64,000 bases of DNA from Symbiodinium sp. CCMP2592 (taxonomy: Eukaryota; Sar; Dinophyceae; Suessiales; Symbiodiniaceae), in assembly GCA_905221615.1 (NCBI GenBank), contig CAJNDT010000009.1:1-64000 (forward strand), read 5' to 3'. The notes below the pieces were generated by a model. That model was not told the DNA's origin, searched no databases, and was given only the letters and a program-made list of their open reading frames with translations. Numbering within the stretch: the first letter of the stretch is position 1; each line of letters starts with the position of its first letter. The translations under genes were made by a program, and so were the position numbers. Below are positions 34,101 through 52,456 of this stretch, in pieces.

Positions 34101-34660
34101 TATGCACCGCCGTGGTGTGGCGTGTCATTAAGTGTGCCGTATATAGTGTGACATATCGTGGCAGTCGATCGATATAGCCATGTCGCGTATACGTCTATGT
34201 CTATATCGACCGTATTATAATTACAATATATATCGCCGTGGCGTGGCTTGGCCTGCTGTGCCATTCGACTGTACTAGCTATATATAGCGTGCCGTGGCAT
34301 GATCGAATTCGACCGTGTGTATATATACCACAGTCACATAGCGTGCCATGTCCGGCATGTGGCACGTGTAGATCGACGTGCGTGGTATGTATGGCATGGC
34401 GTGGTACATATATATAATACACCGGTCGAATATAAATATATATTTATACGTATATAGGCGTGTCGTGGCGCGGCGTGGCGCATGTCATCCGACCAGATCA
34501 TGTACGTAGGTGTATACGTGGCGTCGACGTGTCGTACGTGGCATAAAGTGGCGTGTCGTGTCCGTATATATCATTCGACTATAAGGCCATGCATGCCGTG
34601 GCGTCATTCGACCGTATAATATGCAGACGTTTCGCGTCGTGTCGTGTCGTGTCATTCGAA
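34100..34660. repeat. Degenerate flank of the 46-bp satellite
   Basis: Scattered gtggcgtg, cgtgtcgtg and attcgaccgta words without a fixed period. They look like decayed units of the array that follows. Confidence 0.6.
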
Positions 34661-35930
34661 CGTAATATATACACGTGCCGTGGCGTGACGTGTCGTGTCA
34701 TTCGACCGTATTATACCATAGTGTCGTGACGTGACGTGTCGTGTCATTCGACCGTATTATACTACAGTGTCGTGTCGTGACGTATCATATCATTCGACCG
34801 TATTATACTGTAGTGTCGTGTCGTGCCGTGTCGTGTCATTCGACCGTATTATACTATGGTGTCGTGCCGTGACGTGTCGTGTCATTCATTATACCATAGT
34901 GTCGTGTCGTGACGTGTCGTGTCATTCGACCGTATTATACTACAGTGGCGTGTCGTGACGTGTCGTGTCATTCGACCGTATTATACTATGGTGTCGTGCC
35001 GTGACGTGTCGTGTCATTCGACCGTATTATACTACAGTGTCGTGCCGTGACGTGTCGTGTCATTCGACCGTATTATACTATGGTGTCGTGCCGTGACGTG
35101 TCGTGTCATTCGACCGCATTATGCTATAGTGTCGTGTCGTGACGTGTCGTGTCATTCGACCGTATTATACCATAGTGTCGTGTCGTGACGTGTCGTGTCA
35201 TTCGACCGTATTATACTACAGTGGCGTGTCGTGACGTGTCGTGTCATTCGACCGTATTATACCATAGTGTCGTGTCGTGACGTGTCGTGTCATTCGACCG
35301 TATTATGCTATAGTGTCGTGTCGTGACGTGTCATGTCATTCGACCGTATTATACTATGGTGTCGTGCCGTGCCGTGTCGTGTCATTCGACCGTATTATAC
35401 TATGGTGTCGTGCCGTGACGTGTCGTGTCATTCGACCGTATTATACCATAGTGTCGTGTCGTGACGTGTCGTGTCATTCGACCGTATTATACTACAGTGG
35501 CGTGTCGTGACGTGTCGTGTCATTCGACCGTATTATACTATGGTGTCGTGCCGTGACGTGTCGTGTCATTCGACCGTATTATACCATAGTGTCGTGTCGT
35601 GACGTGTCGTGTCATTCGACCGTATTATACTACAGTGGCGTGTCGTGACGTGTCGTGTCATTCGACCGTATTATACCATAGTGTCGTGTCGTGACGTGTC
35701 GTGTCATTCGACCGTATTATGCTATAGTGTCGTGTCGTGACGTGTCATGTCATCCGACCGTATTATACTGTAGTGTCGTGTCGCGACGTGTCGTGTCATT
35801 CGACCGTATTATGCTATATATAGAGTCGTGTCGTGACGTCGTGTCATTCTACCGAATTACATTGCCGTGCCGTGCCGTGGCGTGGCAATATTCGACCGTA
35901 CTATGTAGGTCGACGTGTCATTCGACCGTA
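34660..35930. repeat. 46-bp satellite array
   Basis: About 25 units of cgtgtcgtgtcattcgaccg followed by tattatac(t/c)a and tggtgtcgtg.cgtga. Adjacent full units counted at 34,965-35,100 are exactly 46 bp. Some units are shortened. Divergence rises at both ends, and the right end abuts the CG-rich arm of the large element. Frames through it repeat every 138 bp and are not genes. Confidence 0.9.
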
Positions 35931-35952: not shown

Positions 35953-36658
35953 GCGCACGCGCGCGCGCGGGGTTCAAGATCCGTTATGCTTAGTATAAGT
36001 TATTTATCATGCATGCATGATCAATTTATAAATGTTGGCACGTATTAGGTACACTATATTTGTATTCATACAATTAGTTTTTAATAGACAGTTATATAGA
36101 CTGGCGCGCGCGCGCGTACAGCGCGCGCGCGCAATGGCTAATTGTTGATGTACTTAAAAGCAAATAACGTTGTGTATATTTATAAATATATATATATATG
36201 TCATTGCAAGCCTTAATACCTGCAATGGCACGCGCGCGCGCGGGGCGCGCGCGCGCCGCCAATTACTAATTAGTATTCTAATTCGAATGTAATTATATCT
36301 ATATAATTATACTGAAATATGTATATATATATATATGGCGCACACGTCGGCGCGCGCGCGCGGAAACGCGCGCGCGCGCCAGCGATGCAGTAAATGGAAT
36401 TATATTGTTATACATTTAGCTTTACACATATTGAATACATATATGGATTGTGGCATATATCCGCGCGCGCGCACGCGCGCGCGCACGCGCGCGCGCATGC
36501 GGATATATTCCACAATCCATATATGTATTCAATATATATGTGTAAAGCTATAAGTATATAACAATATAGTTAATTCAATTTACTGCATGGCTGGCGCGCG
36601 CGCGCGTTCCCGCGCGCGCGCGCGCCGACGTGTGCGCCAGATATATACTTGAAGGATC
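35953..36658. repeat. Left inverted arm
   Basis: Alternating-purine-pyrimidine (CG)n blocks of about 10-26 bp (35,947; 36,103; 36,230; 36,350; 36,463; 36,594) alternate with AT-rich stretches. The inner end is TATACTTGAAGGATC. Relative to the right arm, it carries an extra palindrome at 36,332-36,646. Confidence 0.75.
36332..36646. repeat. ~310-bp near-perfect palindrome with (CG)n centre
   Basis: Arms of about 150 bp. The left arm reads ggcgcacacgtcggcgcg, ..., tgcagtaaat, ..., tttagctttacacatat, ..., catatatggattgtgg; the right arm is the reverse complement with few changes. The centre (36,462-36,497) is a CG/CA alternating tract. It could extrude as a cruciform. Confidence 0.9.
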
Positions 36659-37061
36659 TTGGTGGTTAGTATTTGGTTACAGGGGATATGGGGGATATAA
36701 GTGGGGTTATATAACTTGTGTAAACGGACTTATCTATGTAGTTAACTAGAGTTACCTAAGTGAACTTATTTGGACTTAGCTAAGTGGGATAAGTTGAAAT
36801 ATCAGCAAATATTCACATACATAGATGAACATAAAATGTATATATCCTCCAGCAAAAGCACAGAAGGAGAAGTGAGGCCACCGAGGACCTACATGACAAT
36901 AAGCACGAGTGAAGCCGTCCAGAGCCTGATAAATCAAGCAATATATCGCCACAGAAAGTATTGCATGCATGCACATATTTCTGCAGTGCAAGCATGAGGA
37001 AAAGGCATGTGCATGATTCATGCATGCATGCTTGCAAGTATATACAGCGGTGACTTCAAGA

Positions 37062-37142
37062 CTCGCATGCAGGGCACACTGCTCGCATGCAGACATGCAC
37101 TCATGAAAGAGACTCGCATGCAGGGCACCTTGCTCGCATGCA
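37062..37142 (+). promoter_or_regulatory. Two GCAGGGCA...GCTCG motif copies, left end of element
   Basis: Copies at 37,062-37,092 and 37,112-37,142. Each has the form ctcgcatgcagggca, then 3-5 bases, then tgctcgcatgca. They lie just past the stop codon of the 671-residue gene and about 400 bp inside the left boundary, in opposite orientation to the copy at the right end. Confidence 0.6.
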
Positions 37143-37159
37143 TTTTTTTCGGCTAGCGG

Positions 37160-39175
37160 CTAGACCAAAACGATCGCTTTGCCATCCTTCTCCGAATAGA
37201 TGCAGCACGATTTGATGCTGTCCGTTGTCGTGATAAAGGGGTCGAGGTCTGTGCATTCAAACATGTGCTCGTACACATGCTTCCATGGTGTGACACAAGT
37301 CCAGACTTGGCCTGCAGCTTGGAAGTGAAACTGCACTAGACCCACAGTCGTAGCATCCAAAGCGACGATATCACCTTTTGTGCAAACGAACCCGCCGGCA
37401 TGCATGGCCCGCAAATCATGCAAAATGGGCCCCGTTGCAAATGGCATGACCTGGCCCACGAGATCAACGAGCTTCTTCGGGGCCGGCTTGGGGTTCATAA
37501 GCCGCACCTTTGAGGATGGAAGCTCTGCAGATATGCAGTTCAACTGCACTGCCAAGACATCCTTCAGGACACTCTCCTCGAAGCCCCTGGAGCCATCCAG
37601 CTTTTGGTTCGCAAACCGCTTGACGACTTTGTGTTTTCGCTCGTGGGTGAAGCACCACACCAAGTGGCCAAACTTTGCAAGAAATTCACCTAGATGAAGT
37701 GACATATGGTTCTTTGGAACCCATATATCTTGGCCATAGGTCTCTAGCAAGCAGTTCGAATGTTTCACGATCGTGTCGTGAAGGACCGCCGGGTCAACAG
37801 CACGTCCTCGCACAGCATCATGAAGCATGTCTACGACCTTGCACAGCATCAGGAAGCACATGCATGCCTGGACCGTGCCCGGGCTGATCGCTGTTGTCAT
37901 GACAAACTTCAAGATAAAGATTCGCAAAACAGGAAGAGCATTGAGGAGCTCAGAAGCCTCAGCCTTCACAGGAGATGTTTTCTTTTCCCGTTTTGCAAAA
38001 ACTCTTTTTGCATCGGGTGAAGCGAACTGCTTCGGCCACCGAAAGCTGGACACAAAATCCATGAGTCGATCCTCGCCGAAACCTGCATCGCGAAGCTCGG
38101 CAAAGAAGCAGCCCAATTCATTTCCAACGATGCCATGGACGAGGTAGATGTGAAAAAAATCGAACATTATGGCCTCAGGCACCTTGTGTCCTATGATGTC
38201 ATCCATGAGCAACCCGTGCACTCGCAGATTGAATCCCAGGGCTGTTTCCAAGGCCTCGAACTGTGCTTTGCTAACAGTGCCATGCTGTGCATCCAAGAAT
38301 GCCAGGAAATCCCGAGTCGTGGCATTGGTGTGTAAACGAAATTTCGAATAATCAGTGCACAAGCTGGACACGAACTCAGATCGCATGTCACTCACCGTGC
38401 TTCTGGCAGCAACGACATTGCTGCATCGGCAGCAGAAGACGGTGCCTGAGGCACCTTTTCCCTCGATGGACTGCTTAATGGCCGCTTCATCTGCGACTAA
38501 GATCTTCAAGTCCAAGAAGATGGGGAAATGGTCTCCTTCCGGAGTGTCCACCACCATGCCTTTTCGCATGTCGTGATCTGTGAAAAACAGTCGAAGCATG
38601 AGTCGCCACAAACACGTCAACCCGCCGATGGAAGAACAATGGTGCGACCGTAGGCAGGTCAGTGGAAACCATAATGCCTCAGACGCCAAACCGCGACTTC
38701 CAAGTTCGGATATACTCCAGTATATACATTGGATTTTGCGGGAATTGTTGGCTTTGAGTGTGTTGCCAGGGGTCACTTCATCAGCATAGAAAATGAGACC
38801 CCATGGCCGAGCATAGGATGGTGTCTCCTTGTGTGGCAACACCTCCTGTCGCAGAAATTCCCACAACGGAGCAAGACTGAAGATGTGCTTCAGGAAGGCA
38901 GCCGGGTGGATGTATGGCACCGTCACCGTCTTGTTGCACTGGCCCTCCACCGGGACCTCCATCTTCTGCACCAAGGGCCCATAAACACCGGTAAGAGATG
39001 CAAGGTCCTCCTCCCGAGCTCGCTTGATGGAGCTTCTGGAAGATGTAACGTCGTCGGCAAGCAACCCAGACTTCTTTAAGTCTGTCAACACACTCTCTAT
39101 GCCGTGTTGTGACACATATGCCTTGCGGCCCAACATAGCCAACGGAGCCTTGGAGCTGCTTGCAGTCTCAGTCAT
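37160..39175 (-). CDS. 671-residue transposase-like protein of the large element
   Basis: Single uninterrupted frame, 671 residues. Visible marks: LIFYADEVTPGN (about 128-138), HFPIFLDLKILVADEAAIKQ (about 216-235), a Gly/Cys cluster KGASGTVFCCRCSNVV (240-255), MFDFFHIYLVHGIVGNELG (337-355), and near the C-terminus WVPKNHMSLH (485-494) and CFTHERKHKVVKRFANQ (508-524). Acidic residues followed by a Cys cluster, a D..H helix and a late H-rich/ERKHK block recall, in outline, TNP2- or KDZ-type DDE transposases. This is inference from layout, and I cannot assign the catalytic triad. A GCAGGGCA motif lies 55 bp upstream of its ATG. It is the last gene of the block, nearest the left arm. I remember relatives with YADEV.PGN in several Symbiodinium genomes. 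Confidence 0.7.
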   Translation of the reverse strand: MTETASSSKAPLAMLGRKAYVSQHGIESVLTDLKKSGLLADDVTSSRSSIKRAREEDLASLTGVYGPLVQKMEVPVEGQCNKTVTVPYIHPAAFLKHIFSLAPLWEFLRQEVLPHKETPSYARPWGLIFYADEVTPGNTLKANNSRKIQCIYWSISELGSRGLASEALWFPLTCLRSHHCSSIGGLTCLWRLMLRLFFTDHDMRKGMVVDTPEGDHFPIFLDLKILVADEAAIKQSIEGKGASGTVFCCRCSNVVAARSTVSDMRSEFVSSLCTDYSKFRLHTNATTRDFLAFLDAQHGTVSKAQFEALETALGFNLRVHGLLMDDIIGHKVPEAIMFDFFHIYLVHGIVGNELGCFFAELRDAGFGEDRLMDFVSSFRWPKQFASPDAKRVFAKREKKTSPVKAEASELLNALPVLRIFILKFVMTTAISPGTVQACMCFLMLCKVVDMLHDAVRGRAVDPAVLHDTIVKHSNCLLETYGQDIWVPKNHMSLHLGEFLAKFGHLVWCFTHERKHKVVKRFANQKLDGSRGFEESVLKDVLAVQLNCISAELPSSKVRLMNPKPAPKKLVDLVGQVMPFATGPILHDLRAMHAGGFVCTKGDIVALDATTVGLVQFHFQAAGQVWTCVTPWKHVYEHMFECTDLDPFITTTDSIKSCCIYSEKDGKAIVLV

Positions 39176-39229
39176 GATGATTCAGAAGAGGTGCTCGACG
39201 AGTCAGTTCGTGAAAATGGAAGAAACCCT

Positions 39230-39261
39230 GACCACGAGCAAGTGCCCTGCAGTCGAGCAAT
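39230..39261 (-). promoter_or_regulatory. GCAGGGCA...GCTCG motif upstream of the 671-residue gene
   Basis: On the minus strand: ctcgactgcagggcacttgc then tcgtgg, ending 55 bp before the ATG at 39,175. Same orientation as the gene. Confidence 0.6.
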
Positions 39262-39754
39262 GGCTGGATGCATCCGTGGTACCGGATGACTGTCTGTATA
39301 TAGTCTGAACTTGTGCATGAGAACCATGTCTGAACATGAAGCATCTATATACATATGTGTATAAATTTACGATACGTAAAAGCAATATATACCTATATAA
39401 ACCCATATATAGATACCATATAGTACATACGAGGGAAAACCCTTTATATATAAGCCGACAGACCTATATATATATATATATACACATCCCCTATATAATA
39501 TATAAACCTATATAACCGTAAACCCTAAAACCCTATAACCCTGAAAACCCTATGTATTTATAAACCTGAACCTACAGTGTATATATTATATATTTATGAA
39601 CCTATATATGCACATGGCATGCATGCCTCAGCACTTGGAGCCTGCACACACTGCAGGCACAACACACACACACACACACTCGCCTGCCAACATACACATC
39701 CGGAAGAAGCTGGCAGCACGGGCTTCACACATGGTTGCATGGCATTCATGCATG

Positions 39755-39960
39755 ATGCAAGGAAAGCTCGCGAGCAGCTTTTGCCGACTTTCCTCAAAAT
39801 CCTGTCGCGATGGAGTGCATTTAGCGAAAGCAGGGGCTTCAGACATGGCATTGCATGATGCATGATGCATGGAAAGCTCGCGAGTATAGCTTCTGCCGAG
39901 AATCCTCAAAATCCTGTCGCGATGGAGTGCGATGGAGTGCATTTAGCGAAAGCACGACGG
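39755..39960. repeat. ~110-bp tandem duplication
   Basis: Two copies of a unit containing ggaaagctcgcgag, then tcctcaaaatcctgtcgcga, then tggagtgcatttagcgaaag. They sit immediately downstream (minus sense) of the 477-residue gene. Confidence 0.85.
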
Positions 39961-41376
39961 AGTGCAGCCAGGGCTTCGTCGGCATTTGGGGCAACCAAAA
40001 GGCCGGTAGGGCTTTCGGGCTTCTTTGCTCATCGTTTGCATCACCTCCTTCGAGGGCATGGCCTTGGCCTTCGCATGCGACTTGGCTTTGGCCTTCGGCT
40101 GCGATTTGGCTTTGGCCTTCGGCTGCGATTTGGCCTTGGCCTTCGCCTTTGATTTGGCCTTGGCCTTCGGATTCCCGTGCCCCACTGCGGCATCGGCAGC
40201 AGACGGCTTCTTCATGGCCGGGCCCTTGTCCGATTCCAGCTTGCGACTCTCCCATGCCGCCAGCATTGCATTAGCTTGCTCGGCTGGTTGCAGGGGCGGC
40301 TTATTCTGGTCGTTGGTGGTCTCGGACTGCAGCCCCCAGTTCTCAATCTGCTGCTGTTGCCCATGCGGATCTGATTGATGTCCTTGCGGCTCCGATCGAT
40401 GTCCTTGCCCCGCCTGGTTGGAAGGAACGATCTGTGCATCGGTCGGCTTTCCCTGACTCTGATGTCCTGCAGGCTGCCCCGGTTGATTGAACAGAACGAG
40501 GTTCGGCAAGCCTTGGGACTTCGGGGTTGGCGGTGCCATCCACTGCTGCTGCATATGATTGTATGCCTGCATCATCTGCTGCATCGTCATAAACTGCTGC
40601 CCATGACTCGGCAACAGCGGCACATGACTCGGCAACATATGACTCGGGAACATGCCCGGCTGATGCTGCCACGAGCTGGCAGAAGTGGAAGGCGAAACAC
40701 TCTTGTGCGACTTCCTCACGGGTCCAGTGATGCCCACTGGGCCACTTCGCACCGAAGCCTGAGGGCTGTCTTTGAAGCAACGTTCGGCCAGGTCCTTTGG
40801 CAACTGGTCGGGAGTGCTGAATGTCTGGACATGCACTGAAGCAGGCAGCATCTTCTTCACATGTCCTTTCAATGCCGCCTTAAAGTCTTGAACAGACTTC
40901 AAGAACTCGCCCGGCTCCCCCAATTCTGCTACCTGCATGTGTTGCTTGAGGAAGCTGATGGCCCTCCCGCATGACTGCTCGGTTGGGTTGCTGCACCCCA
41001 CTCGAGAGAACACCATGCTCAGCCGTGTGACCTTTGCGAGAACGTTCAGATCGGGATTGCTCAGGCAACTGACATCGTCTTCCGAGAGGAACGGAGCAAC
41101 ATCAGGCAGTTCTTGAGTGCATTTCTTCGTCCTCTTGCTAGCAGCTGCTTTTGCAATCTTCTCGGATACGATGGTGATCAGCTGATCTTTTTGCCCCGGG
41201 GAGAAAGGGGAGTCGGCGATGGTCTTCATGAGGGGTTCCATGTCTTCGTTGCCCAAGTCCATCGCCTTGAGCTGCTGCTCCAAGCTGTGAAGCTGTGCCG
41301 TCAAGACATGTTGGCGAGCCGTGTCATCCTGGAGGGTCCCGATGATGGCTTTCACCGCCGCAAATTGCTGCATCAT
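39943..41376 (-). CDS. 477-residue basic-tailed protein with Cys cluster
   Basis: Single frame starting MMQQFAAVKAIIGTLQDDTA. Residues 1-200 are helical, with a recognisable segment LPDVAPFLSEDDVSCLSNPD and VTRLSMVFSRVGCSNPTEQS. Residues 220-400 are Gln/Met/Pro-rich and probably disordered. A basic tail follows, built on KAKAKSQP repeats. The C-terminus reads RPFGCPKCRRSPGCTPSC, a compact Cys cluster of the GC.KCR...GC..C type that I have seen in many dinoflagellate proteins. The composition points to nucleic-acid binding (a Lys/Ala tail like histone H1 plus a zinc-knuckle-like end), but no activity is shown. The frame is open 12 codons upstream of the chosen Met with no other Met. Belongs to the leftward gene set of the large element. 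Confidence 0.75.
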   Translation of the reverse strand: MMQQFAAVKAIIGTLQDDTARQHVLTAQLHSLEQQLKAMDLGNEDMEPLMKTIADSPFSPGQKDQLITIVSEKIAKAAASKRTKKCTQELPDVAPFLSEDDVSCLSNPDLNVLAKVTRLSMVFSRVGCSNPTEQSCGRAISFLKQHMQVAELGEPGEFLKSVQDFKAALKGHVKKMLPASVHVQTFSTPDQLPKDLAERCFKDSPQASVRSGPVGITGPVRKSHKSVSPSTSASSWQHQPGMFPSHMLPSHVPLLPSHGQQFMTMQQMMQAYNHMQQQWMAPPTPKSQGLPNLVLFNQPGQPAGHQSQGKPTDAQIVPSNQAGQGHRSEPQGHQSDPHGQQQQIENWGLQSETTNDQNKPPLQPAEQANAMLAAWESRKLESDKGPAMKKPSAADAAVGHGNPKAKAKSKAKAKAKSQPKAKAKSQPKAKAKSHAKAKAMPSKEVMQTMSKEARKPYRPFGCPKCRRSPGCTPSCFR

Positions 41377-41580
41377 CTTCGCTGGCGACAGCGGATCTTC
41401 ACTATCGTGCTAGACAACGTGATATGTCCTGAGAACCACAACATGAGTACATGCATCATGTGTGCAAAGGTGTTGTGTGAATGTCCATCTTGTGAATGCA
41501 TCAATGAGCATGCAGGACAGCATGCAAGCGACTGCATGCAGGCTTTCTTTTTTCAACATGTATTCCATGAAACTTCGCCA

Positions 41581-41666
41581 TGCTTCTGCATGGGCATCAA
41601 AACTGTGCCAGATGCTTGTGCAATGCTTCTGCATGGGCATCAAAACTGTGCCAGATGCTTGTGCAA
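41581..41666. repeat. Exact 43-bp tandem duplication
   Basis: Two identical copies of tgcttctgcatgggcatcaa, then aactgtgccagatgcttgtg, then caa. It lies at the 3' end of the broken gene copy described next. Confidence 0.9.
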
Positions 41667-41855
41667 AGCCACGAACCTCGGGTCGGTGTTGCCGATGATC
41701 CTCTACTTCGGCAGCCGCCGCTCGAAACTCGCCTTGCTGCTGTTCGCATTCGCCAGATCTCCCGTGGATCGCATGATCTCTTGCTCTGCATGCTGAAGCT
41801 CTTTGGCCAGACAACCCGGCCGGAGAGCATTGCCCGAGTGGTTCGGATCCACACA
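41639..41855 (-). pseudogene. Broken tandem copy of the 3' end of the 206-residue gene
   Basis: The minus-strand frame ends LPK-stop-RIIGNTDPRFVALHKHLAQF-stop. The intact gene at 42,098-42,718 ends LPKRRMVGKTDPRYLALGRH then MAPF, so the two align residue for residue except for a TAG in place of Arg. Upstream, QEIMRST matches QNIIRST of the intact gene, with a deletion between. Flanking DNA is duplicated too: ccacaacatgagtacatgca at 41,438 and ccacaacatgaatatatgca at 41,911. This is therefore a tandem duplication remnant and not a separate gene. Confidence 0.75.
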
Positions 41856-42097
41856 CTGGGCGACTATATAATAGCTAGAAACTATATATAATAGGCACCC
41901 TGTCTTGAGGACCACAACATGAATATATGCATCATGTGTGCAAAGGTGTTGTGCGAAAGTCTGTATGTTGTGAATGCATGCATGAGCAGGACGAGCGACT
42001 GCATGATTTCTTTTTCAACCGATGCAGCTTCTTGTGCATGTGCCACACGAAACAAAACTCAAATCAGAGTGCATGGGCACAGTAAACAACACTGAAA

Positions 42098-42718
42098 TCA
42101 AAATGGGGCCATATGCCTCCCTAGAGCCAGGTAGCGAGGGTCGGTCTTTCCGACCATTCGCCTTTTAGGCAACTGCTTCTGGTATTGCGACTTCTTCACA
42201 TGTGGGGACCACAGCTTCGCCGTCTTGCTCAGGATGCGTGTGTGTCCCATGAAGACCACCTTGTTGGTCGATCTGATGATATTCTGCCGCAACAAAACGG
42301 TTCTGACTCTCGCCGAGACAGTATTCATCCTGATGTCAAGGGTGGCCAGTTGTCTCCCTTTCCATGCCACTCGGCCCGACAGCATGGTGCCCTGAAGCCA
42401 GACAAATCCGTCCTCGAGGCGGGCTTGAAGGTTGATGTAGAGGGTGCCAGCAGGGGCCGGGCGAATGATCATGGGTCTCACGTTGCCGTTTTGTATGGCC
42501 CGCCATAGACTCCCATCCTGATTCGCCAACGGTCGAATCATGTGGCAGTGCCATCCACGAAATGAGATCACGTCATAACCCTGGGTGAGTCTGTAGTTCG
42601 ACACATAACTCAAAGCCTCAAACTGGCCATTGTGAGGAAAGTCGCCAGAAGACCACTTATCAACGAAGGCAGCCTCGTGTGTTCGGATGTCGGGGTGCAA
42701 CACTTGATGCACTGCCAT
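42098..42718 (-). CDS. 206-residue hypothetical protein of the large element
   Basis: The chosen start is MAVHQVLHPDIRTHE at 42,718; the frame is open further upstream but that part is His/Cys-rich spacer. Readable segments: FVDKWSSGDFPHNGQFEAL, SFRGWHCHMIRPLANQDG, FVWLQGTMLSGRVAWKGRQL, VLLRQNIIRSTNKVVFMGHT and the basic end QLPKRRMVGKTDPRYLALGR. Mixed beta-strand-like composition with a basic C-terminus. I do not recognise a domain. A GCAGGGCA motif lies 79 bp upstream. A damaged second copy of its 3' end follows it at 41,639-41,855. Confidence 0.7.
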   Translation of the reverse strand: MAVHQVLHPDIRTHEAAFVDKWSSGDFPHNGQFEALSYVSNYRLTQGYDVISFRGWHCHMIRPLANQDGSLWRAIQNGNVRPMIIRPAPAGTLYINLQARLEDGFVWLQGTMLSGRVAWKGRQLATLDIRMNTVSARVRTVLLRQNIIRSTNKVVFMGHTRILSKTAKLWSPHVKKSQYQKQLPKRRMVGKTDPRYLALGRHMAPF

Positions 42719-42796
42719 GATGGATGCGGGTTGTGGCAACTGGCTCGTGACGTGCTCTGCTCGGCAACTCAAAACCTGCGGCAATGCATGACATGT

Positions 42797-42824
42797 CTGC
42801 TCACGAGCACTGCCCTGCGAGCGA
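42797..42824 (-). promoter_or_regulatory. GCAGGGCA...GCTCG motif upstream of the 206-residue gene
   Basis: On the minus strand: attcgctcgcagggcagtgc then tcgtgagc, 79 bp before the ATG at 42,718. Confidence 0.5.
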
Positions 42825-43661
42825 ATGGTGCATGCTCGTGCATGCACAAGCACACATCTGTGATTGACGTGCATGGCTGTCGATCATGCAGGGAATATAC
42901 TTCCGTGTCATGTCACGTGCTGCCCTCCAAAGGAAAGGGCTCGGCGGTCGAGTTTGTTGGTTACGATTGGCGGCTTTGGTTGTTTCTCTGTACCTTCTCT
43001 CACCGTCTCTGTCTCTTTCTGGCTGCAATGTATGCACACACTGCCGGGCTGGACCTGGCACCTTGCACATGCACACAAACATGCATGCAAATATCGCTCT
43101 CTCTTTCTGGCTGCACTGAATGCACACACTTCCGGATAGACGTGGCACCACCCCACCGCCCCGCCACCCCACTGCACCCCACCATGGGCTGCAGGCTTTT
43201 CGCTTGTGGTTTGGGTTGCTGTCTGCATGGGGTTTGGGATTTCGTATTGTGGGACTGTATATATATATATATATATATAACAGTGTTTTGGTGTTTCTGG
43301 GTTAGAAGTGTTTTGGTGTTTCTGTGTTTTCGTGCTTCCTGGTTGTGTGGCTTTGTTGTTTGGGGTGTTCGAGTTCTGGTGTTGTGGGCTGCCTCTGGCT
43401 TCTCTTTCGCTCTCTCTCTTTCTCTCTCTTGCACAGAACACATGGAAACTTCGCGAGGCTGGTACACACTCCCTGTCCCAAGGTGCACACAATCTCAGGT
43501 GCATGCAGCCGATGCAGCCAGCTTTTTTTCTTCCTTCTTCAAACAGTGTGTTCTGTACAAGAGGCAAAATGCCTGAGGTTCCGAACGGACAGCACACGGA
43601 AGCGAGGCAAAGGATGCCAGCCTAGAGGTTGCCAAGCTAGCTAGAGCCTAGGCACGAAGTT

Positions 43662-43881
43662 TATCAATCTATAAAGGGTTTTTAAAACCACAACCCAAAC
43701 CATATCAATCTATAAAATCGCTGGCAATATGGAGCCCACAATTTATCAATTTATAAAGTTGTAGCCTAAAAACACAGACAACCATATCAATCTATAAACT
43801 TTCAGGGTCCAAGGCACACACAACCATATCAATCTATAAAGTTATGTGGTTCCTGGACCCAAAACCATATCAATCTATAAA
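43662..43881. repeat. Iteron-like array: six TATCAATCTATAAA boxes at 41-42 bp spacing
   Basis: Boxes at 43,662; 43,703; 43,744 (one mismatch, TATCAATTTATAAA); 43,785; 43,827; 43,868. Start-to-start distances are 41, 41, 41, 42 and 41 bp, about four turns of B-DNA. Spacers of 27-28 bp share only a short AACCA (or similar) just before the box and are otherwise different. The array lies in non-coding DNA near the midpoint (43,857) of the 36,644-51,071 unit. The pattern fits protein-binding iterons; the binding protein is unknown. Confidence 0.85.
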
Positions 43882-44664
43882 ACCTGTGTTCTAGCCCCTA
43901 TGCACTAGAACGGCCTACTTCCGAGTTTGCCCCGGATGTTCGGACCTTACATGAAGCCTTTTTCCTTTGGCCCCGCTGCCTGTGCCGTCAATTTCCTAGC
44001 TTCTTTGCCGCAGCCGGTGCACGAGAAACGGGCTTGGGTCTATGCTGCTGTGCTGTGTGCATGAGTCTGTGGCTGCTGTGTTCTGTGTGTCTATGGCTGC
44101 TGTGTTGTGTGAGTCTGTGGCTGCTTTGCCGTTCGTGGCTGCTGCTTTTCTACCTGACAACCTATAAGCCCTTAACCCTTTCTCATGCACTCGACCACAG
44201 CCTCGGACAGATTGTGCACGGATTCCCATGCCAGGTTCATGGGTCCTGCCATTGTGCACAACCATGCATGTCTTTCGCAATGTGTTGTTCACGTGCACTC
44301 CCCGGCCTTGACCGCGAGATCGTGGCCGCGATCGCCCTTCACCAGGCCTATGTGCCACGAGACATGCATCATGATCCGGTTGCCACGAAGTGCTGAGCCC
44401 CCAGCCCGTGCCATTGGCCAGTGGTGGGGTTCATCCACCACTCCCCAATCCTCCATCCTTTTCCATCCCACTTCGGCACCGGCCCATTGGCCACCGCCCC
44501 AGGCGGTGGGACCGGCCCATTGGCCACCGCCCCCGCCGGTGCAATGGGGGGGGGGGGAGTCTGGGGCGCCGGTGGTGGTGGGGGAGGGGGGGCATGGCCT
44601 TTCCCACCCCCTGCAGGGGGTGGTGGTGGCGGTGGCCACCACTTCCTGGAGTCCTGTCAGGATT

Positions 44665-44665
<1 letters not shown>

Positions 44666-44697
<32 letters not shown>

Positions 44698-44702
44698 GTG
44701 TG

Positions 44703-44788
<86 letters not shown>

Positions 44789-44930
44789 CGTGTGTGTGTG
44801 TGCTGTGTCTCGGTGTCTCGGTGTGTGTGTGTGTGTGTGTGCCTCTGTGTCTGTTTCTTTTTTTTTTTTTGTGTGTGTGTGTGTGTGCCTGTGTGCTTGT
44901 GTAGTGTGTGTGTGTGTGTGTCTCTCTGTG
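44666..44930. repeat. (GT)n microsatellite with interruptions
   Basis: A long GT tract, then tctcggtg and poly-T interruptions, then further GT. Preceded at 44,460-44,640 by a G-rich ggtggtgg/ccaccgcc tract with two ccggcccattggccaccgcc copies. Non-coding. Confidence 0.9.
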
Positions 44931-45182
44931 TTTGTGTGCCATGTTATCAGTGCACCCACGACATCATGCATCAGCGAATCAGGCCTTGGAAGAGGCTCCC
45001 CCCGATCCGGATGCCCTCTGCTCCTCACCACATGTTGCATGCATTCGTGCTTACAAACCACTGCACCCCATGCATGACCGCATCTCCTTGCCCTTCGGCG
45101 GATGCTCTGGCTCCCGGGGCTTTTTCGAAGTCTCCACCTGCGACAGCACATGCATATCACATTGTATCCAAGAATCTATCGC

Positions 45183-45238
45183 CCTAAACCCTATAAACCC
45201 CCTATAACCCTTATAAACCCTAAACCCTTATAAACCCA
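45183..45238. repeat. Degenerate CCCTAAA-like tract
   Basis: ccctaaaccctataaacccc, then cttataaaccctaaaccc and similar. Resembles the CCCTAAA telomere type with TATA-containing variants; a similar stretch is at 39,519-39,560. Confidence 0.5.
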
Positions 45239-45570
45239 CGGACCCTTGCCTTCGGCATCTTTGTGGTCTGCCAACCCTGTCGGGTGAACACTAGAAATGT
45301 TATCCAAAATGAAGATGCTTGCGATCTTGGGCACCGGCTCCCTTTCGTGCCTTTTTGTTGCCACTGCCCTCCTGCAAACGGCAAAGGAGGAGTGGGTTAA
45401 ACAAAGAAACAGAACATTCTCCTCCGAAAGCAGCCACTTCCTCTTGGGCACCGTGGGCATTTTCTTCTCCTGCACCCAGAACTATATATAATTGTGTTAT
45501 ATATAGTTAGGGTACCGGGGCTTGGGTTTGGATTATACACTCAGATACACACACACAGAGACATGACACT

Positions 45571-45600
45571 CTCGTGTGCAGGGCGACAAGCTCGCATGCA
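45571..45600 (+). promoter_or_regulatory. Divergent GCAGGGCA-type motif copy
   Basis: ctcgtgtgcagggcgacaag then ctcgcatgca. Orientation opposite to the surrounding genes; lies at the 3' end of the 45.6-46.5 kb gene. Confidence 0.45.
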
Positions 45601-45609
45601 GGGATCTAC

Positions 45610-46041
45610 CAAGGCGGGATGGAAGCCTTCGGCTTCAGAACCACGGGGCCCATCTCCATCTCCACTTCGACCTCCTGCCAGAACACATATAAGAAAGGTT
45701 CAATATATAAGCGAGTATACATGCCGGCTCCTCGAAGCCTGAACTGTCTGATGCCTGCCAATCTGCATGCAAAAACAGGGCTCGACACTTCGCGGTTTTC
45801 GAGTTGGTGCCTCTGCAGCAGGCACCAAGTTGATCGGCTCCCGTGCCTGCATGCAGGGCTGAATTGAGTACTTCGTTATAAGCGATGGATTCGGCACCTC
45901 CGGCGGCTCTACATCGAAATCCCCCTGGCAACATGCATGCATGCCTTATATATAAGCTTGGTGTTCCAAGAGGTGTCCTCCAACCGCAGTGTGCTGGGGA
46001 TCCACGTGTTGTCGAAGTCGAGGGCTTCCCAGCCTGCAGAT

Positions 46042-46078
<37 letters not shown>

Positions 46079-46500
46079 TATACGAAACTCCGAGCAAATG
46101 ACCTTCCGGGGGTGGCTTCTCGGCACTTTTGTCCGGGTGCCGGAAGAGGCACATGCCTGCAAGGGATATTGTTCTAAAAAAACAACACAATGAATTCCCA
46201 GACGGAAAGCCCGACCTCCGTCCTTGATCAGGATCCTCCACCCCTTGCCCTTGGTCCAGCGAAGCTCCCCGGACTGGCTGGTCCACATTCCCTGCAATTG
46301 TACAAGTATATACCGGCACTCAGCAAAGTGAAATACAACAAGCCTCCTCCGTCTCCTCCATGCCCCCCAGCAGCTCGACCTGCATGAAGGAGCTCCAGTC
46401 CACGGACTCCTGCAACAAAAAATCATTTATAAGGTCCAAGCGAACGAACAAGGCCGGTCGATCCTCGGTCACATCTCCGATGGAGAACCGCATCATGGCG
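45610..46500 (-). CDS. Hypothetical gene with several micro-introns
   Basis: Coding pieces on the minus strand: RFSIGDVTEDRPALFVRL (about 46,440-46,497), ESVDWSSFMQVELLGGMEET (about 46,345-46,410), GMWTSQSGELRWTKGKGWRI onward to KVICSEF (about 46,085-46,287), WEALDFDNTWIPSTLRLEDT (about 45,975-46,045), DFDVEPPEVPNPSLITKY onward (about 45,735-45,925) and EVEVEMEMGPVVLKPKASIP (about 45,612-45,680). Gaps between them begin with gt/gc/ga and end in cag. They often contain TATATA: one is gtatatga, a (TA)n run and then ctgcag; another is gtatactcg...ctggcag (46 nt). No function recognised. Exact splice sites and phase are unresolved at two junctions. The gene lies between the 195-residue gene and the iteron array. 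Confidence 0.5.
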
Positions 46501-46966
46501 ACCCCCTATGAAGCTGCCAGCAGGGTCTGCATGACATGTGCATGTGCATTGCATATAGTGCACTGCTGTGTGCATTGCCTGGTGCATTGCTGTGATGGCA
46601 TGCGAGCATCATCTATCACATGTGGCACGTGTCTGTATATGTATACACACAGCACACCATGCCCTCGGAAAACAGGCGAAGCCATGCCTACAAAACCAGC
46701 TCGGAGCCTGCACCATGCATTGCACAAGACATTGTATCCTGACATGATCAACAGCCATCAGTCAAGCTTGCAGGACAGTTGCGAATCGCAAAACCAAGCA
46801 CAACCCCCCTATAAACCCAACTGCTGACATGGAGCTGGTGATATAAAGACTTTTCTTTCTATGAATATAGAAAAACATAGAAAAGACAGCAGCACTTTTC
46901 TTGATTTCCAGCATGCACATGAGCTACGAGTCGGGATTGCATCATGTTCGTGCTTATATGTTCTCT

Positions 46967-46992
46967 GCCGACGAGCATTGCCCTGCCGGCGA
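46967..46992 (-). promoter_or_regulatory. GCAGGGCA...GCTCG motif copy
   Basis: On the minus strand: tcgccggcagggcaatgctc then gtcggc. It is nearly identical to the copy at 50,628-50,655. It lies just after the stop codon of the 195-residue gene, thus upstream of the next gene leftward. Confidence 0.55.
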
Positions 46993-47005
46993 AAAAGCTA
47001 GCCGC

Positions 47006-47593
47006 CTATATCTCTTTCTTTCTCTTGGCTCCTCGGGGCTGCCGGTCCTTGCTCTCCGAGTTCACAAAGCCAGCTTTCAAGTGTCGCAAGTTCGCCTTTG
47101 TAAGTTCAAACCACAAAGTATGACTGCCAAGCCCTTCGAAGAGAACCTTTGCTGTGGGAGTCGGGCCACCTTCCTCGATGGCAGGCAACTGCATGTCGAT
47201 GTAATACGGGGCATATTGTTGATGTTTGGCAGCTGTGGCTTTGAAACTCTTGAAGACCTTCTTGTTTTGGGGCGGGGTGTCCTCTTGGTCGTCGTCTTCG
47301 CTTTGCAGGCGCTTTTGGATGACTTCGTTGAATGTCGTCTGTCTCTGGGTCATCAAGTCATCGAAGAATTTGCTGTTTAACGACCGGCTATCCTTGTCCT
47401 TCCGGAGATCTAGGGCCTTGCCGAACACAAATTTCGTGAAGCCTCTGTCCCACCTGCCGTTCACCGAAAACCACACCATGCCCTCTTCGTTCTTCTGAGT
47501 CGGGATCCACTGCTCGCCCTTCCCATACATGACCACGGTCTTTGTGCATAGTCGAACGTCACGATCATCTTCATGTTCAAAATCATCAGCCAT
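47006..47593 (-). CDS. 195-residue hypothetical protein of the large element
   Basis: Starts MADDFEHEDDRDVRLCTKTV. Then WIPTQKNEEGMVWFSVNGRW, DRGFTKFVFGKALDLRKDKD, a charged helix (DDLMTQRQTTFNEVIQKRLQ), an acidic break, YYIDMQLPAIEEGGPTPTAK and a basic end (GAKRKKEI). A compact, hydrophilic protein with an acidic N-terminus and basic C-terminus. No domain recognised; I recall similar predicted proteins in Symbiodinium. A shortened relative of its N-terminus lies upstream at 47,895-47,970. Confidence 0.65.
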   Translation of the reverse strand: MADDFEHEDDRDVRLCTKTVVMYGKGEQWIPTQKNEEGMVWFSVNGRWDRGFTKFVFGKALDLRKDKDSRSLNSKFFDDLMTQRQTTFNEVIQKRLQSEDDDQEDTPPQNKKVFKSFKATAAKHQQYAPYYIDMQLPAIEEGGPTPTAKVLFEGLGSHTLWFELTKANLRHLKAGFVNSESKDRQPRGAKRKKEI

Positions 47594-47894
47594 GTCGACG
47601 GGAGGTGTGTGCACACAAGAGCTCAACTACACATACAAGCTGTAACATGTCATGCAAGGATTCGCTCATGCACATGCAAGCACCTCAAGTGAATGCGGCT
47701 TTGCCAATGACAGCACACCACAACAGCGATCACGAATGGCATTTTTTGCACAGCTGCATGCTGCAATGCTGCCATCCTCGCGGTGTCATGAAGATCGTTG
47801 TGTGGCCCAAGCAAGCATATATGCATGCATGTGCCAATGCTTCCCCAAAAACCATCGTGGCATGTGCATGATGGTGCATGTGATATGCTGTGGG

Positions 47895-47970
47895 TCTGCC
47901 GGAGCCAAACCACAGTCTTTGTGCAAAGTCGCAGCCCAGCATCTTCTTCGTGTTCGGAACCAGATGCCAT
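47895..47970 (-). pseudogene. Duplicated 5' fragment of the 195-residue gene
   Basis: Starts ATG and reads MASGSEHEEDAGLRLCTKTV then VW, against MADDFEHEDDRDVRLCTKTV then VM in the intact gene. After about 25 codons the match ends in tgcatgcatg-rich DNA. Either a remnant of tandem duplication or an alternative first exon. Confidence 0.6.
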
Positions 47971-48284
47971 GTCCGTGGAACAATCTCTATAGGACTCGAG
48001 AGCTCATGAGCTACACAGCAACCGGCAACATCCGAGTTCTTGCACCGATTCACTCAGGCATGCACGAACACTTCAAAACTGACTGGGCACTGTCATGTGC
48101 CAACTACGAAGAGCAGCTGAAGCAAAGTTTGCACATGCAGCATTTTGCACTGATGCTCGAAAGCACCCATCCTGCCAGGCGCTCAGAATCGATATCTATG
48201 CCAGTGCCAGCACAGAGGCTGCATGCATGCAAGTGCCAATGCTTCCACGAAACCTCCTGTGCATGTGCATGAGATGTGCATGCC

Positions 48285-50575
48285 TCACTGTCCCGGACCC
48301 TTAGTGCGGAGTCTCTTCCCGGGTCGGTTCGGGGAATCTGCATCCAGAGGCACAACCTGCTTTTCAACCTTGGGCTTGTAAATGAAAAGGCTCTCACCCT
48401 CTGCGATTTCCCGTGGATTCTTCAGGACCGGCAAGTGCACCTTGCTGTCCCTGTGACTCTTGATGTAAGAGAGCTCCATGTTGCCGACCTCCTCGTCGTG
48501 TGTGGTCTGCACCATGAAAGCCGGGTTGGCAAACCCGGGGTCCCCTTCGGCCTTGGGCAGCATCAACATGGGCTGGGACCAAAAGTGAACCCCTGCCAAA
48601 GGCTGCATGATCTCGATGCAATCATCCGGCAGCTTCGTGCCACTCTTCACCTGGAGAGAGCACGGAACCACGATCAACTTGTTCTTGGGAATCTTGCTCA
48701 CGGCTAAGACCTTCTTCTGCGGCTTCAAGTGCATCTCAAGCCGTGAAAGCATAGTGTTTGCTTCATGCTTAGCCTGCAACTCCAACATGTCGAGTGTGAT
48801 CATGGCTTGCATTCGCTGCTTTTCAAGATCAGGATGCTTGCTTGGGGCATACTGCAAGATGTCTTTGAGAAGCACCGGCTCGGGCTTGGGAGTGTAGGTC
48901 ACCCAATCTCCACTCAGAAACACATCCATCACGACTTTGCCTAGAGTGCCATCGATCTGCTTGAGCTGAACCTTCCCAGCTTGGCACCCCGCGATCTGGC
49001 CGGACTGGCCATCGCTCTTCCTCCTATCCGATGGTGAAGCCTGCATCTTGCAGAAGGGTCAGGCCATCCTTCACGGTCCCATCGGGATTGAGTTCCCGCA
49101 TCGTCGTGACTTTTGGGCTTGGGCTACTACCCGACTCGCTTTGCACTGTCATGGCATGCTGCTCCCATGGCGATTCGATGTGCCGGTGGCAGATGCCTCG
49201 CATGATCACAACCACATCGTGTGCCAGGGCCTCTTTCGAAGTGTACTGCTTCACTTCCAGTGGCATCTTCAACACGAAACCGATGAGATGAATGTCTGCC
49301 AAGCTGAGAGCTGTGGAAAGCTCGGGCATTCTCAGAAGATCCGTGCCTTCTGGGAGCTTCTCTACCAACGATCGCCACTGGTGCATGAACCCGTCCGCCG
49401 TGCGAACCTCGCTCAGGAGGTCTTTGTGTAACAGCCTCTTGACATCAGCTGCCTGAGCAATCTCTTTGGCATATGCGAGCTTCACCTGGGCTTCTCGAAA
49501 TTAAATGTCAGATAAACATATATGTGAAAATGTGTGCAACATGCAACAACAAAGCTCAACATGTTCTGTTTCGGAATCACGGGGCAAGTTAATGCCTGGC
49601 CCTGGGGAATTGGTTTGTGCCCTTCACCTCCTGGGAAATCTTGTCCCAGAACTCAGCACCTAGGCTCCGAGTGCTGGGGCTGTGCCGCCTCACGAAGGAT
49701 TCCGTCTCGTCCAACAAGAACGGGATGCGACCGCCCCCGAACTTCAAGGCGAAAGTGTAGAGGTGTGGAAGAGACTTGTGATGCACAGTCTTTCCGGTCG
49801 TCACTCGCTTCTTGATCGTCATGAAGTCAACGTGTTGGTGCTGGGTTGCTTCGAGCATCCACATGCCGTGTAGGCGACGCATCAGCTGCAACTCGTGTTC
49901 GTGGCGTTGAAGAGTGGCGTTTCCCATTCTTTGTACCATCGACATCAGATGTGGCAGACTTGCTGCAGCTTCCTTGGTGATAACTTTCCACGTCACCCCA
50001 TTTTGGGCGGCTTTGTAAAAGCTTTCATCCTTCTTGCGGAGCAGTTCCATGTTGAGACGTCCATCGTGACAAATGCTCTCGTCTCCCTCGTGCTGGATCT
50101 CTTGGGACAGGATCCGCAACACACAATTTGTGTGCGAGCCAGCCAAGCTTAGACACTTGATGGCACTGGGGTCAAAGGTACCCAGCATTCCGTGTGTGGC
50201 TTTGAAGAACTCCACGTTCCAAGTCACTTCGGCTGCAGACTGCACCTCCACCCCGATCGCGGAGACCCGGTCCTCGAGAAAGCCTGCGGCCAAGATATCC
50301 GAAAGCAAATCGTGGACGTCCACGGCATTCACGCCGCTCCCGTCGCGGTTGAGCGGCGATATGCCGATCATCGACGGGTGCAAAGCCATTTTGTACAGCA
50401 GCCCCCGGGACTCCAAGAGTGTGAGGCACTCGTGAACATTCTTCACGAGCCCCTCGCCGTCCTTGGCGGAGTCAAGGATGCTCTCGCACCTTGCGAGAAG
50501 AGCGGCATCCATCGCACCAGCTGGATGGCAAACACCGAAAACCGTGCGGACACACTTGAGCAGCTGATGTGCCAT
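48285..50575 (-). CDS. Three-exon gene at the right end of the large element
   Basis: Exon 1: 50,575 (MAHQLL...; alternative Met MDAALL at 50,512) to 49,628. Exon 2: 49,485-49,075. Exon 3: 49,040-48,285. The introns are 49,486-49,627 (142 nt, gtgaaggg...agcccag) and 49,041-49,074 (34 nt, gtgaaggatg...gatgcag). Both keep frame and remove the apparent overlap of two reading frames at 49,024-49,046. Exon 1 contains ALHPSMIGISPLNRDGSGVN and CLSLAGSHTNCVLRIL, a pattern (HPSNRDG.G.N..DVH) that I recall as a dinoflagellate family. Exon 2 has LRMPELSTALSLADIHLIGF; exon 3 has KIPKNKLIVVPCSLQVKSGT and VHLPVLKNPREIAEGESLF. About 700 residues in total. Function unknown. A GCAGGGCA motif lies 53 bp upstream of the first Met. 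Confidence 0.65.
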
Positions 50576-50627
50576 GAATATAAAGTGCATGTGATTCATG
50601 AATCATGAGGAGCATGCACATGATTCT

Positions 50628-50655
50628 GCCGACGAGCATTGCCCTGCCGACGATC
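50628..50655 (-). promoter_or_regulatory. GCAGGGCA...GCTCG motif at the right end
   Basis: On the minus strand: atcgtcggcagggcaatgct then cgtcggc. It is 53 bp upstream of the ATG at 50,575 and about 400 bp inside the right boundary. Confidence 0.6.
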
Positions 50656-51056
50656 ATGTTTGCATGATATATGCAGCACCCATGCATGCAAGCAGTCTGT
50701 CGCATGTCTCCAAATGCCGCTCTCGCACGTGTTTCATGCAAGTTTGCTCTTTGTCTGGCCAGCTTTCCTGTGTCTTTTCAACACAGCATAAATCCACTTA
50801 CTTGACTTATAAGTTGTCATCCAAATAAATATATTTCATGCATAATCATTTACTAATTACTTATGAACCATTTACCTAAATGTTGTATTTGAAAACGAAC
50901 CATGACAAATATTTATATGTGCTTGATTGCACTTACTATGATATATAAATCACTTACCAAACTTGAAGGAGTTATAACTTGATTTACAAAACTTATATCT
51001 TCAGTTAGCCAACATAATATCTTCTTCAACTGGCATATCCAAATAGTAAACGACAC

Positions 51057-51515
51057 GATCCTTCAAGTATAATATACATATATTTCAACATATACATATA
51101 TATAATATTACATTCGAATTAAAATACTAATTAGTGATTGGCAGCGCGTGCGCCGCGCGCGCGCGCCAACATTTGCAAATAAATTATGAAATAGAATTAA
51201 ATTTTGGTATACATATATTTAATTTGAATACCACTGTGCGCGCGCGCGTGCGCGCGCGCGCGCGTGCGTCCCAGTGCATGGTAATTACGCGTATACAGCA
51301 TTAAGTGTAGAAATATGTAGTGTGTGCATATATGTGCATAATGTATTTGATATACAAATTCGAATCTTAAACCCAGAGCGCGCGCGCACACGAGCGCGCG
51401 CGCGCGAATCCCCGCGCGCGCGCGCGCGCACATATCCCCACGCGCGCGCGCGCAAGCGCGTTCCCGCGCGCGCGCGCCGACGTGTGCGCCAGATATATAT
51501 AATACACATATTTGA

Positions 51516-51546
<31 letters not shown>

Positions 51547-51965
51547 TACATTCGAATTAAAATAGTAATTGGCAGCGCCGCGCGCGCGCGCGCGCCAACA
51601 TTTGCAAGCAAATGATAAAATAAAATTGAAATTTGGTATACATATATGTAATTTGAATACTTATATACGTCTATAGTGCCACTGTGCGCGCGCGCGTGCG
51701 CGCGCGCGCGTCCCAGTGCATATTTACGCGTATAGCATTCAGTGTAGAAATATGTAGCGTGTGCATATATGTGCAGAATGTATTTGATATACAATTTCGA
51801 ATCTTAAACCCAGAACGCGCGCGCGCACGCGCGCGCGCGCGAATCCCCGCGCGCGCGCGCGCGCGCAAATCACACGCGCGCGCGCAACCCCGCGCGCGCG
51901 CGCGCGCAAGCGCGCAAGCGCAAGCGCGCGCGCGCCATTGCGCGCGCGCGCGCGGCGTGCGTGCC
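51057..51965. repeat. Right inverted arm, two tandem ~430-bp units
   Basis: Begins with GATCCTTCAAGTATA, the reverse complement of the left inner end. Unit 1 (about 51,076-51,490) and unit 2 (about 51,500-51,960) each contain attacattcgaattaaaata, gccaacatttgca, tttggtatacatatat, a (CG)n block, cccagtgcat, tgtagaaatatgtag and cgaatcttaaacccag, then more (CG)n. The (CG)n runs reach about 20 bp. Confidence 0.8.
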
Positions 51966-52354: not shown

Positions 52355-52456
52355 AACCGAACGGCACGCGGCCGGATGACACGCGGCACGCGGCCGGATG
52401 ACGGCACGCGGCCGGATGGACACGTGGCCGCTGCCACGTGGCCGGTTAGCCCGTCC
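52355..52456. repeat. CACGTGGCC repeat, copy 3, at the copia truncation point
   Basis: Repeated ggcacgcggccggatgacac and cacgtggccg words, ending gtggccggttagcccgtcct then ggt. This terminal sequence recurs, inverted and slightly changed, at 12,397-12,425. The copia frame starts to match the reverse transcriptase family right after it. Confidence 0.65.

What the first reader, a model, noticed from the sequence alone, without database searches (positions are those of the whole stretch)
36644..51071. Possible new class of large inverted-repeat mobile element with six to seven leftward genes
An exact 15-bp inverted sequence (36,644-36,658 and 51,057-51,071) lies at the inner edge of longer inverted arms, and every gene between reads the same way. 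The cargo is a fixed-looking set: a transposase-like 671-residue protein, a Lys/Ala-tailed Cys-cluster protein, a ~700-residue three-exon protein and smaller unknowns. A common intergenic motif and a central iteron array add to the impression of one unit. I know of no described transposon with this gene set. Inference: a giant DNA transposon or virus-like element of dinoflagellates.
Basis: partly seen in the sequence, partly recalled or inferred. Interest (0 to 1): 0.88.

Follow-up and report, generated by a model that had tools for sequence, protein, structure and literature searches.

The report
RAG1-like multigene transposon in Symbiodinium
A 14-kilobase jumping DNA element in a coral-symbiont alga carries its own gene set, including a cutting enzyme predicted to fold like the antibody-gene recombinase RAG1 with a chromatin-reading tail, and it appears to have moved recently.

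The parts
36648..51067 (-). complete transposon, 14,420 bp, genes leftward
   Evidence: same unit with the same ends at eight loci
36646..36647 (.). target-site duplication TA, left copy
   Evidence: TA/TA at 7 of 7 copies with both ends read
51068..51069 (.). target-site duplication TA, right copy
36648..36671 (+). left terminal inverted repeat, two boxes: CTTGAAGG, 10 bp, TTAGTA; first 11 bp exact inverted
51044..51067 (-). right terminal inverted repeat, two boxes: CTTGAAGG, 10 bp, TTACTA
36698..36794 (.). left subterminal repeats ACTTA/TAAGT, 7 copies
50796..50995 (.). right subterminal repeats ACTTA/TAAGT, 7 copies
37160..39175 (-). transposase, 671 aa, RAG1-core-like DDE fold plus C-terminal BAH-like domain (predicted)
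37163..37513 (-). BAH-like domain of the transposase (residues 555-671)
39943..41376 (-). Lys/Ala-tailed protein ending in a Cys cluster; possible accessory DNA-binding protein
   Evidence: fused to the transposase in gene models P0005, P0007, P0008, P0091
42098..42883 (-). 261-residue open frame, found in family A copies, not detected in the 39% family
43653..43882 (.). central array, 6 copies of about 24 nt at 41-42-nt spacing; its core string is absent from the 39% family element
47006..47593 (-). small protein gene (206-residue open frame from 47626), relative in the 39% family
48285..50512 (-). three-exon gene (exon 1 about 49589-50512, exon 2 about 49024-49500, exon 3 48285 to about 49025); boundaries inferred
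   Evidence: P0063 gene model; one 805-residue frame in the 39% family
36232..36645 (.). host target: palindromic CG/AT-rich repeat, left part (not part of the element)
51070..51166 (.). host target repeat, right part, continuous with the left part before insertion
51446..51808 (+). uninterrupted neighbouring copy of the target repeat (empty-site paralogue)
   Evidence: joined flanks align across the junction, 82% over 373 columns

Best explanation
It is an autonomous, recently mobile DNA transposon, and one of several related families in this genome. Shown by sequence: defined ends, TA target duplication, empty-site paralogues, near-identical copies at unrelated loci, mostly intact genes. Inferred: the transposase binds the two-box terminal repeat and the ACTTA subterminal repeats, probably helped by the basic Lys/Ala-tailed protein; its RNase-H-like DDE site cuts both ends and joins them to a TA dinucleotide with a 2-bp stagger, in the cut-and-paste manner of the CACTA-Mirage-Chapaev-Transib/RAG1 group; the C-terminal BAH-like domain tethers the complex to chromatin. 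The small protein and the three-exon protein travel as constant companions and are probably needed for assembly, regulation or escape from silencing. Confidence by step: mobile element about 0.98; DDE/RAG1-type cut-and-paste about 0.85; a lineage distinct from the named superfamilies about 0.7; BAH tethering about 0.6; roles of the companions about 0.3-0.5.
Against: No excision product, transcript or protein was examined, so cut-and-paste is inferred. In the 36-sequence alignment that includes fragments only the second D and first C of the motif set stay invariant. Of the 10 non-A copies, 2 lack TA next to the end read (C1112, flanked by a 26-bp direct repeat, and C198). 4 of 66 transposase places lack an exon-1-like place within 40 kb, 6 more have it beyond 15 kb, two share one, and 11 of 72 exon-1 rows used have no transposase partner. 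RAG1 and Transib may top the fold list only because they have been solved. No Pfam family matched the main genes above its cut-off. Some copies have a stop or frame break in the K/A-tailed protein (C3414, C103, C5216).
Confidence: 0.85

Rival explanations
1. It is a divergent member of an already named CMCT lineage with 2-bp target duplications (fungal ESTA, or Mirage) rather than a new lineage.
For: ESTA makes TA duplications and its transposase resembles RAG1 by HHpred (PMC12730594, section 16); motifs C(2)C and H(3-4)H are shared.
Against: The ends are CTTGAAGG..CCTTCAAG, whereas most CMCT lineages end CA..TG. No TET/JBP domain in the nine element frames scanned. The rows that carry an organism name are dinoflagellates, though only 7,997 candidates were scored and most rows are unnamed. 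None of this excludes deep common descent.
Confidence: 0.25
2. A host gene cluster copied by segmental duplication, with a chance short inverted repeat.
For: Unidirectional gene blocks and gene duplication are common in Symbiodinium (passages).
Against: Homology stops exactly at the CTTGAAGG ends with TA and unrelated flanks at eight loci; empty-site paralogues at 100% identity.
Confidence: 0.01
3. The long inverted arms are the real ends and the element is larger (36234-51166 or more).
For: 95-nt arms at 82% complementarity.
Against: The flanks of the copies at other loci are unrelated to the arms; the arms join into one uninterrupted host repeat.
Confidence: 0.01
4. A virus-like or Polinton-like element.
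For: Multi-gene, 12-14 kb, unknown proteins, central array.
Against: No viral hallmark domain in the nine element frames scanned with Pfam; a RAG1-like transposase and short ends with 2-bp duplications.
Confidence: 0.03

Closest known systems
[quoted passage not shown]
   Same: TA target duplication; RAG1-like transposase; C(2)C and H(3-4)H motifs
Transib and RAG1/RAG2 (ProtoRAG)
   Same: overall RAG1-core fold of the predicted transposase; C(2)C and H(3)H; two-box terminal repeats are reminiscent of a heptamer-spacer-nonamer signal (recalled)
   Different: 2-bp TA rather than 5-bp duplication (5 bp recalled); different end sequence; about 10% identity; BAH-like domain; extra genes
EnSpm/CACTA
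   Same: large, several genes, short subterminal repeats near both ends (recalled for CACTA), CMC-type motifs
   Different: ends not CACTA; TA rather than 3-bp duplication
Mirage and Plavaka
   Same: 2-bp duplications (Mirage recalled; Plavaka), C(2)C and H(3-4)H
   Different: ends differ (PlavakaA TGT..ACA, PlavakaB CATCA..TGATG); companion genes

Membership tests
[quoted passage not shown]
   D134, D231, C250xxC253, H492xxxH496, E514 in 24 aligned sequences; definition
[quoted passage not shown]
   TA in 7 of 7 family A copies with both ends read; exceptions in other groups C1112 and C198
[quoted passage not shown]
   CTTGAAGG..CCTTCAAG or CTTAAAGG
ESTA | TA target duplication | tested here: met
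ESTA | transposase groups with ESTA in a tree | not testable with these tools
   no ESTA sequence was at hand
ESTA | TET/JBP dioxygenase gene (in the three families first described; some ESTA lack it) | tested here: not met
   no such domain in the nine element frames at E up to 1
Transib/RAG | RAG1-core fold | tested here: met
Transib/RAG | 5-bp target duplication (recalled) | tested here: not met
   2-bp TA
Transib/RAG | RAG2-like partner | tested here: inconclusive
   no Pfam match above cut-off in companion proteins; their folds could not be predicted
EnSpm/CACTA | CACTA-type ends and 3-bp duplication | tested here: not met
EnSpm/CACTA | subterminal short repeats at both ends (recalled) | tested here: met
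   ACTTA/TAAGT 7 and 7 in terminal 300 bp, 3 in the rest of the element
Polinton/virus-like | protein-primed polymerase B, retroviral-type integrase, capsid genes (recalled) | tested here: inconclusive
   none found by Pfam in nine element frames; plus-strand frames not scanned, folds of companions unknown

The most novel reading that the evidence does not exclude
A previously unrecognised major lineage of RAG1-type transposons in dinoflagellates, sister to or outside the named CMCT superfamilies, in which a RAG1-core transposase has a built-in BAH chromatin reader, recognises two-box ends with a fixed 10-bp spacer (a recombination-signal-like layout), depends on a conserved four-gene set, and is still moving in Symbiodinium.
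Probability: 0.45. Interest if true: 0.88.

Novelty: new variant of a known kind. Interest (0 to 1): 0.78.

Why it matters
RAG1-type recombinases are known mainly from animals, and their CMC-type relatives from plants, fungi and animals (recalled). A transposase with a RAG1-core fold and a BAH-like domain in alveolates, in recent multi-copy families that Pfam does not recognise and that gene annotation labels UBC6, would widen the known range of this enzyme class and give a natural comparison for how end recognition and chromatin targeting evolved. It is also a candidate starting point for gene-delivery tools in coral symbionts (inference).

Tried and rejected
Rejected: long arms as element ends; host segmental duplication; left ends genome-wide without genes. 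Same-strand genes as evidence: dropped, because it is normal in this genus.

Led nowhere: Pfam at loose thresholds on the transposase family (36 members), the exon-1 family (33 members) and six further proteins gave only scattered weak rows. PDB sequence-profile searches gave no transposase match and no row at all for the exon-1 family. A viral-contig scan with the transposase alignment matched nothing, using one peptide pattern. Contig lengths as fingerprints between the protein tables gave no shared contig. The 28% match of the 206-residue frame to P0077 (E 3e-4) hints at linkage in S. microadriaticum but is weak. No CACTA, Mirage, Chapaev or ESTA entry is among the rows, which excludes nothing.

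Empty-site queries for C1, C2112, C3414 and C5011 gave no row, but only 40 of 1557 candidates were scored there, so that is no evidence. A third row spanned the junction of the window's joined flanks weakly (77%, 87 query bases). In one search I used 66 of 72 transposase rows (six C-terminal fragments dropped) and 72 of 119 exon-1 rows (47 rows, all at 41% identity or less, left out). One search was the same script, stopped by a formatting error. Both tables are capped (66 of 764 and 119 of 483 candidates scored).

The two-box pattern was derived from the same ends it then found, so its presence at ends is not independent; it found nothing else in the window or in the other sequences scanned there (12 loci plus the ten copies). 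It misses the left end of C2112 and the end of C630 by one base.

The RAG1 residue numbers used for the spacing comparison (D600, D708, C727, C730, H937, H942, E962) are recalled; no residue-level structural alignment was available.
Full report
What is there. The window is the first 64 kb of contig C9 of a 1,098,105,373-base assembly. Two contigs of that assembly (C3224, 754,862 bases; C4896, 1,767,994 bases) have the same lengths as the contigs of database proteins P0005 and P0007, named Symbiodinium sp. CCMP2592, so the genome is very probably that strain, called S. tridacnidorum in PMC8045281 (passages).

The arms are the target. Joining the sequence left of the element to the sequence right of it gives a string that aligns, across the junction, with 51446-51808 (82%, 373 columns) and with the reverse complement of 36232-36631 (85%, 416 columns); a third row is weak (77%, 87 query bases). 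Homology to the uninterrupted copies ends at 36647 on the left; on the right it begins at 51068 against one copy. So the element split one arm of a pre-existing palindromic repeat.

Other loci. The transposase (P0001) gives 72 matches in the genome: 66 main rows and six C-terminal fragments; 66 of 764 candidates were scored, so these are lower bounds. Eleven places are 99.7-100% identical. The ten outside the window were fetched and compared. Where both ends were read (C1, C2112, C3414, C3224, C5011, C2019 and the window) the unit runs from CTTGAAGGATC to its complement and is flanked by TA on both sides, 7 of 7. Lengths are 14,358-14,526 bp, and 15,874 in C5011, whose fetched stretch holds 2,340 N. 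C3414 shares its right flank with C103 and its left flank with C2348, and C2019 shares its right flank with C5369, so the eleven places are eight loci. C5216 shows only its left end in the fetched stretch; its exon-1 gene lies 21.6 kb away, so that copy carries extra sequence.

Empty sites. With one TA kept, the joined flanks of C3224 match three other places over 301 query bases and those of C2019 match 37 other places over 298 bases, all listed at 100%. The other four queries gave no row; only 40 of 1557 candidates were scored.

Age and constraint. Coding differences from the window copy are 0.06-0.33%. Most frames are intact; C3414 and C5216 have a stop in the K/A-tailed protein, and C103 and C5216 show frame breaks there. 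Of the 66 main transposase rows of all groups, 63 list no internal stop. Between the window transposase and the 89% copy at C4896, dN is 0.060 and dS 0.335.

Left ends only with the gene. The first 300 bp of the element match 13 places: nine family A ends, C103 (63 bp, because the contig begins there), C630, C4896 and C3235. The first twelve lie beside transposase rows. C3235 is a relic with an altered end and a 123-residue piece of transposase. So I saw no swarm of short non-autonomous copies with this end; the right end could not be queried.

Groups. Main rows fall into 11 at 99.7-100%, 2 at 88-89%, 15 at 49-54%, 32 at 39-40% and 6 at 41%. I read the transposase-side end of ten copies from the other groups (C4896, C630, C624, C4902, C340, C5151, C1258, C1112, C198, C1324): all ten end in CTTGAAGG or CTTAAAGG, 8 of 10 next to TA, and each has 5-10 ACTTA/TAAGT in about 300 bp inside the end, counted in nine of them (C1112 was not counted apart). 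C1112 is instead flanked by a 26-bp direct repeat (read); C198 has no TA at the end read. The 39% element at C1258 was read end to end: about 11,987 bp, with transposase, K/A-tailed, small and three-exon genes in the same order and orientation, the three exons there being one 805-residue frame. The 261-residue frame gave no match there, and the core strings of the central array and of the telomere-like repeats are absent.

Gene linkage. 62 of 66 transposase places have an exon-1-like place upstream on the same strand within 40 kb (56 within 15 kb); two of them, on C4896, share one exon-1 row. Distances cluster by group (mostly 8.1-8.5, 8.5-8.9, 10.1-10.2 and 10.3-10.5 kb). Chance gives about 0.0008 per place within 15 kb. 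Two opposite-strand pairs occur, both on C3224 between neighbouring copies. Without partner: C2348 (contig begins inside the element), C1580, C549, C4912; and 11 of the 72 exon-1 rows used have none. Independent gene models fuse neighbours: K/A-tailed protein plus transposase in CCMP2592, KB8 and S. microadriaticum, exon 1 plus a 48-residue piece of transposase in a eukprot entry.

Ends. The two terminal repeats agree beyond the 11 bp as two boxes, CTT[AG]AAGG and TTA[GC]TA, 10 bp apart, across groups. ACTTA/TAAGT occurs 7 times in each terminal 300 bp and 3 times in the rest of the element. None of 62,502 other 300-bp stretches of the window has more than 4; dinucleotide shuffles of the two ends reach 7 in 1 and 0 of 1000. 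The 39% element has 7 and 9 of 20.

Mechanism. Shown: TA duplication, defined ends, empty-site paralogues, intact recent copies. Inferred from fold and motif: DDE strand transfer as in CMCT transposases. Inferred from analogy with CACTA (recalled): binding of subterminal repeats, perhaps by the basic K/A-tailed, Cys-cluster protein. Inferred from the fold: chromatin tethering by the BAH-like domain. Companion roles are open.

Known or new. PMC12730594 (passages and section 16) defines the CMCT clade; this element meets its motif and duplication criteria and misses the usual CA..TG termini. ESTA is nearest by description (TA, RAG1-like), but no ESTA sequence was at hand. Relatives of the transposase with an organism name are all dinoflagellates: Symbiodinium sp. 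CCMP2592 and KB8, S. microadriaticum, Effrenium voratum; most rows have no name and candidates were capped. The rows shown by searches include no title or abstract start describing such an element; the lists are capped and the library lacks most subscription papers. Beyond listings I saw passages of PMC9860276, PMC7789003, PMC8110479 and PMC8045281.

Noticed in passing
L031:1719-1744 and L032:2707-2732 (C1112 copy of the 39% family): This copy is flanked by a 26-bp direct repeat instead of TA (read), as if it had used another insertion route or landed in a tandem repeat.
   Followed up: no
window 39501-39553 and 45182-45237: Degenerate telomere-like CCCTAAA arrays lie in two intergenic stretches inside the element; the exact strings are absent from the 39% family element.
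   Followed up: partly
window 34603-35884: 28-copy tandem array of a 46-bp unit just left of the target palindrome.
   Followed up: no
window 52380-54062: Copia-type reverse transcriptase fragment (RVT_2, E 1.1e-6, 28.9 bits, below Pfam's cut-off of 31.6) just right of the target repeat.
   Followed up: no
window 36428-36535: A 54-bp inverted repeat with no spacer, 91% complementary, at the centre of the target palindrome.
   Followed up: partly
database proteins P0005, P0007, P0008: Public annotation calls the fused K/A-tailed protein plus transposase UBC6, apparently wrongly.
   Followed up: no
C2019 insertion flanks (L021/L022): The element sits in a repeat with at least 37 other copies listed as identical over 298 bp, itself a recently amplified sequence.
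   Followed up: no
G000:C5216:9089-34275: This copy's exon-1 gene lies 21.6 kb from its transposase rather than about 10.4 kb, so it seems to hold an inserted stretch.
   Followed up: no
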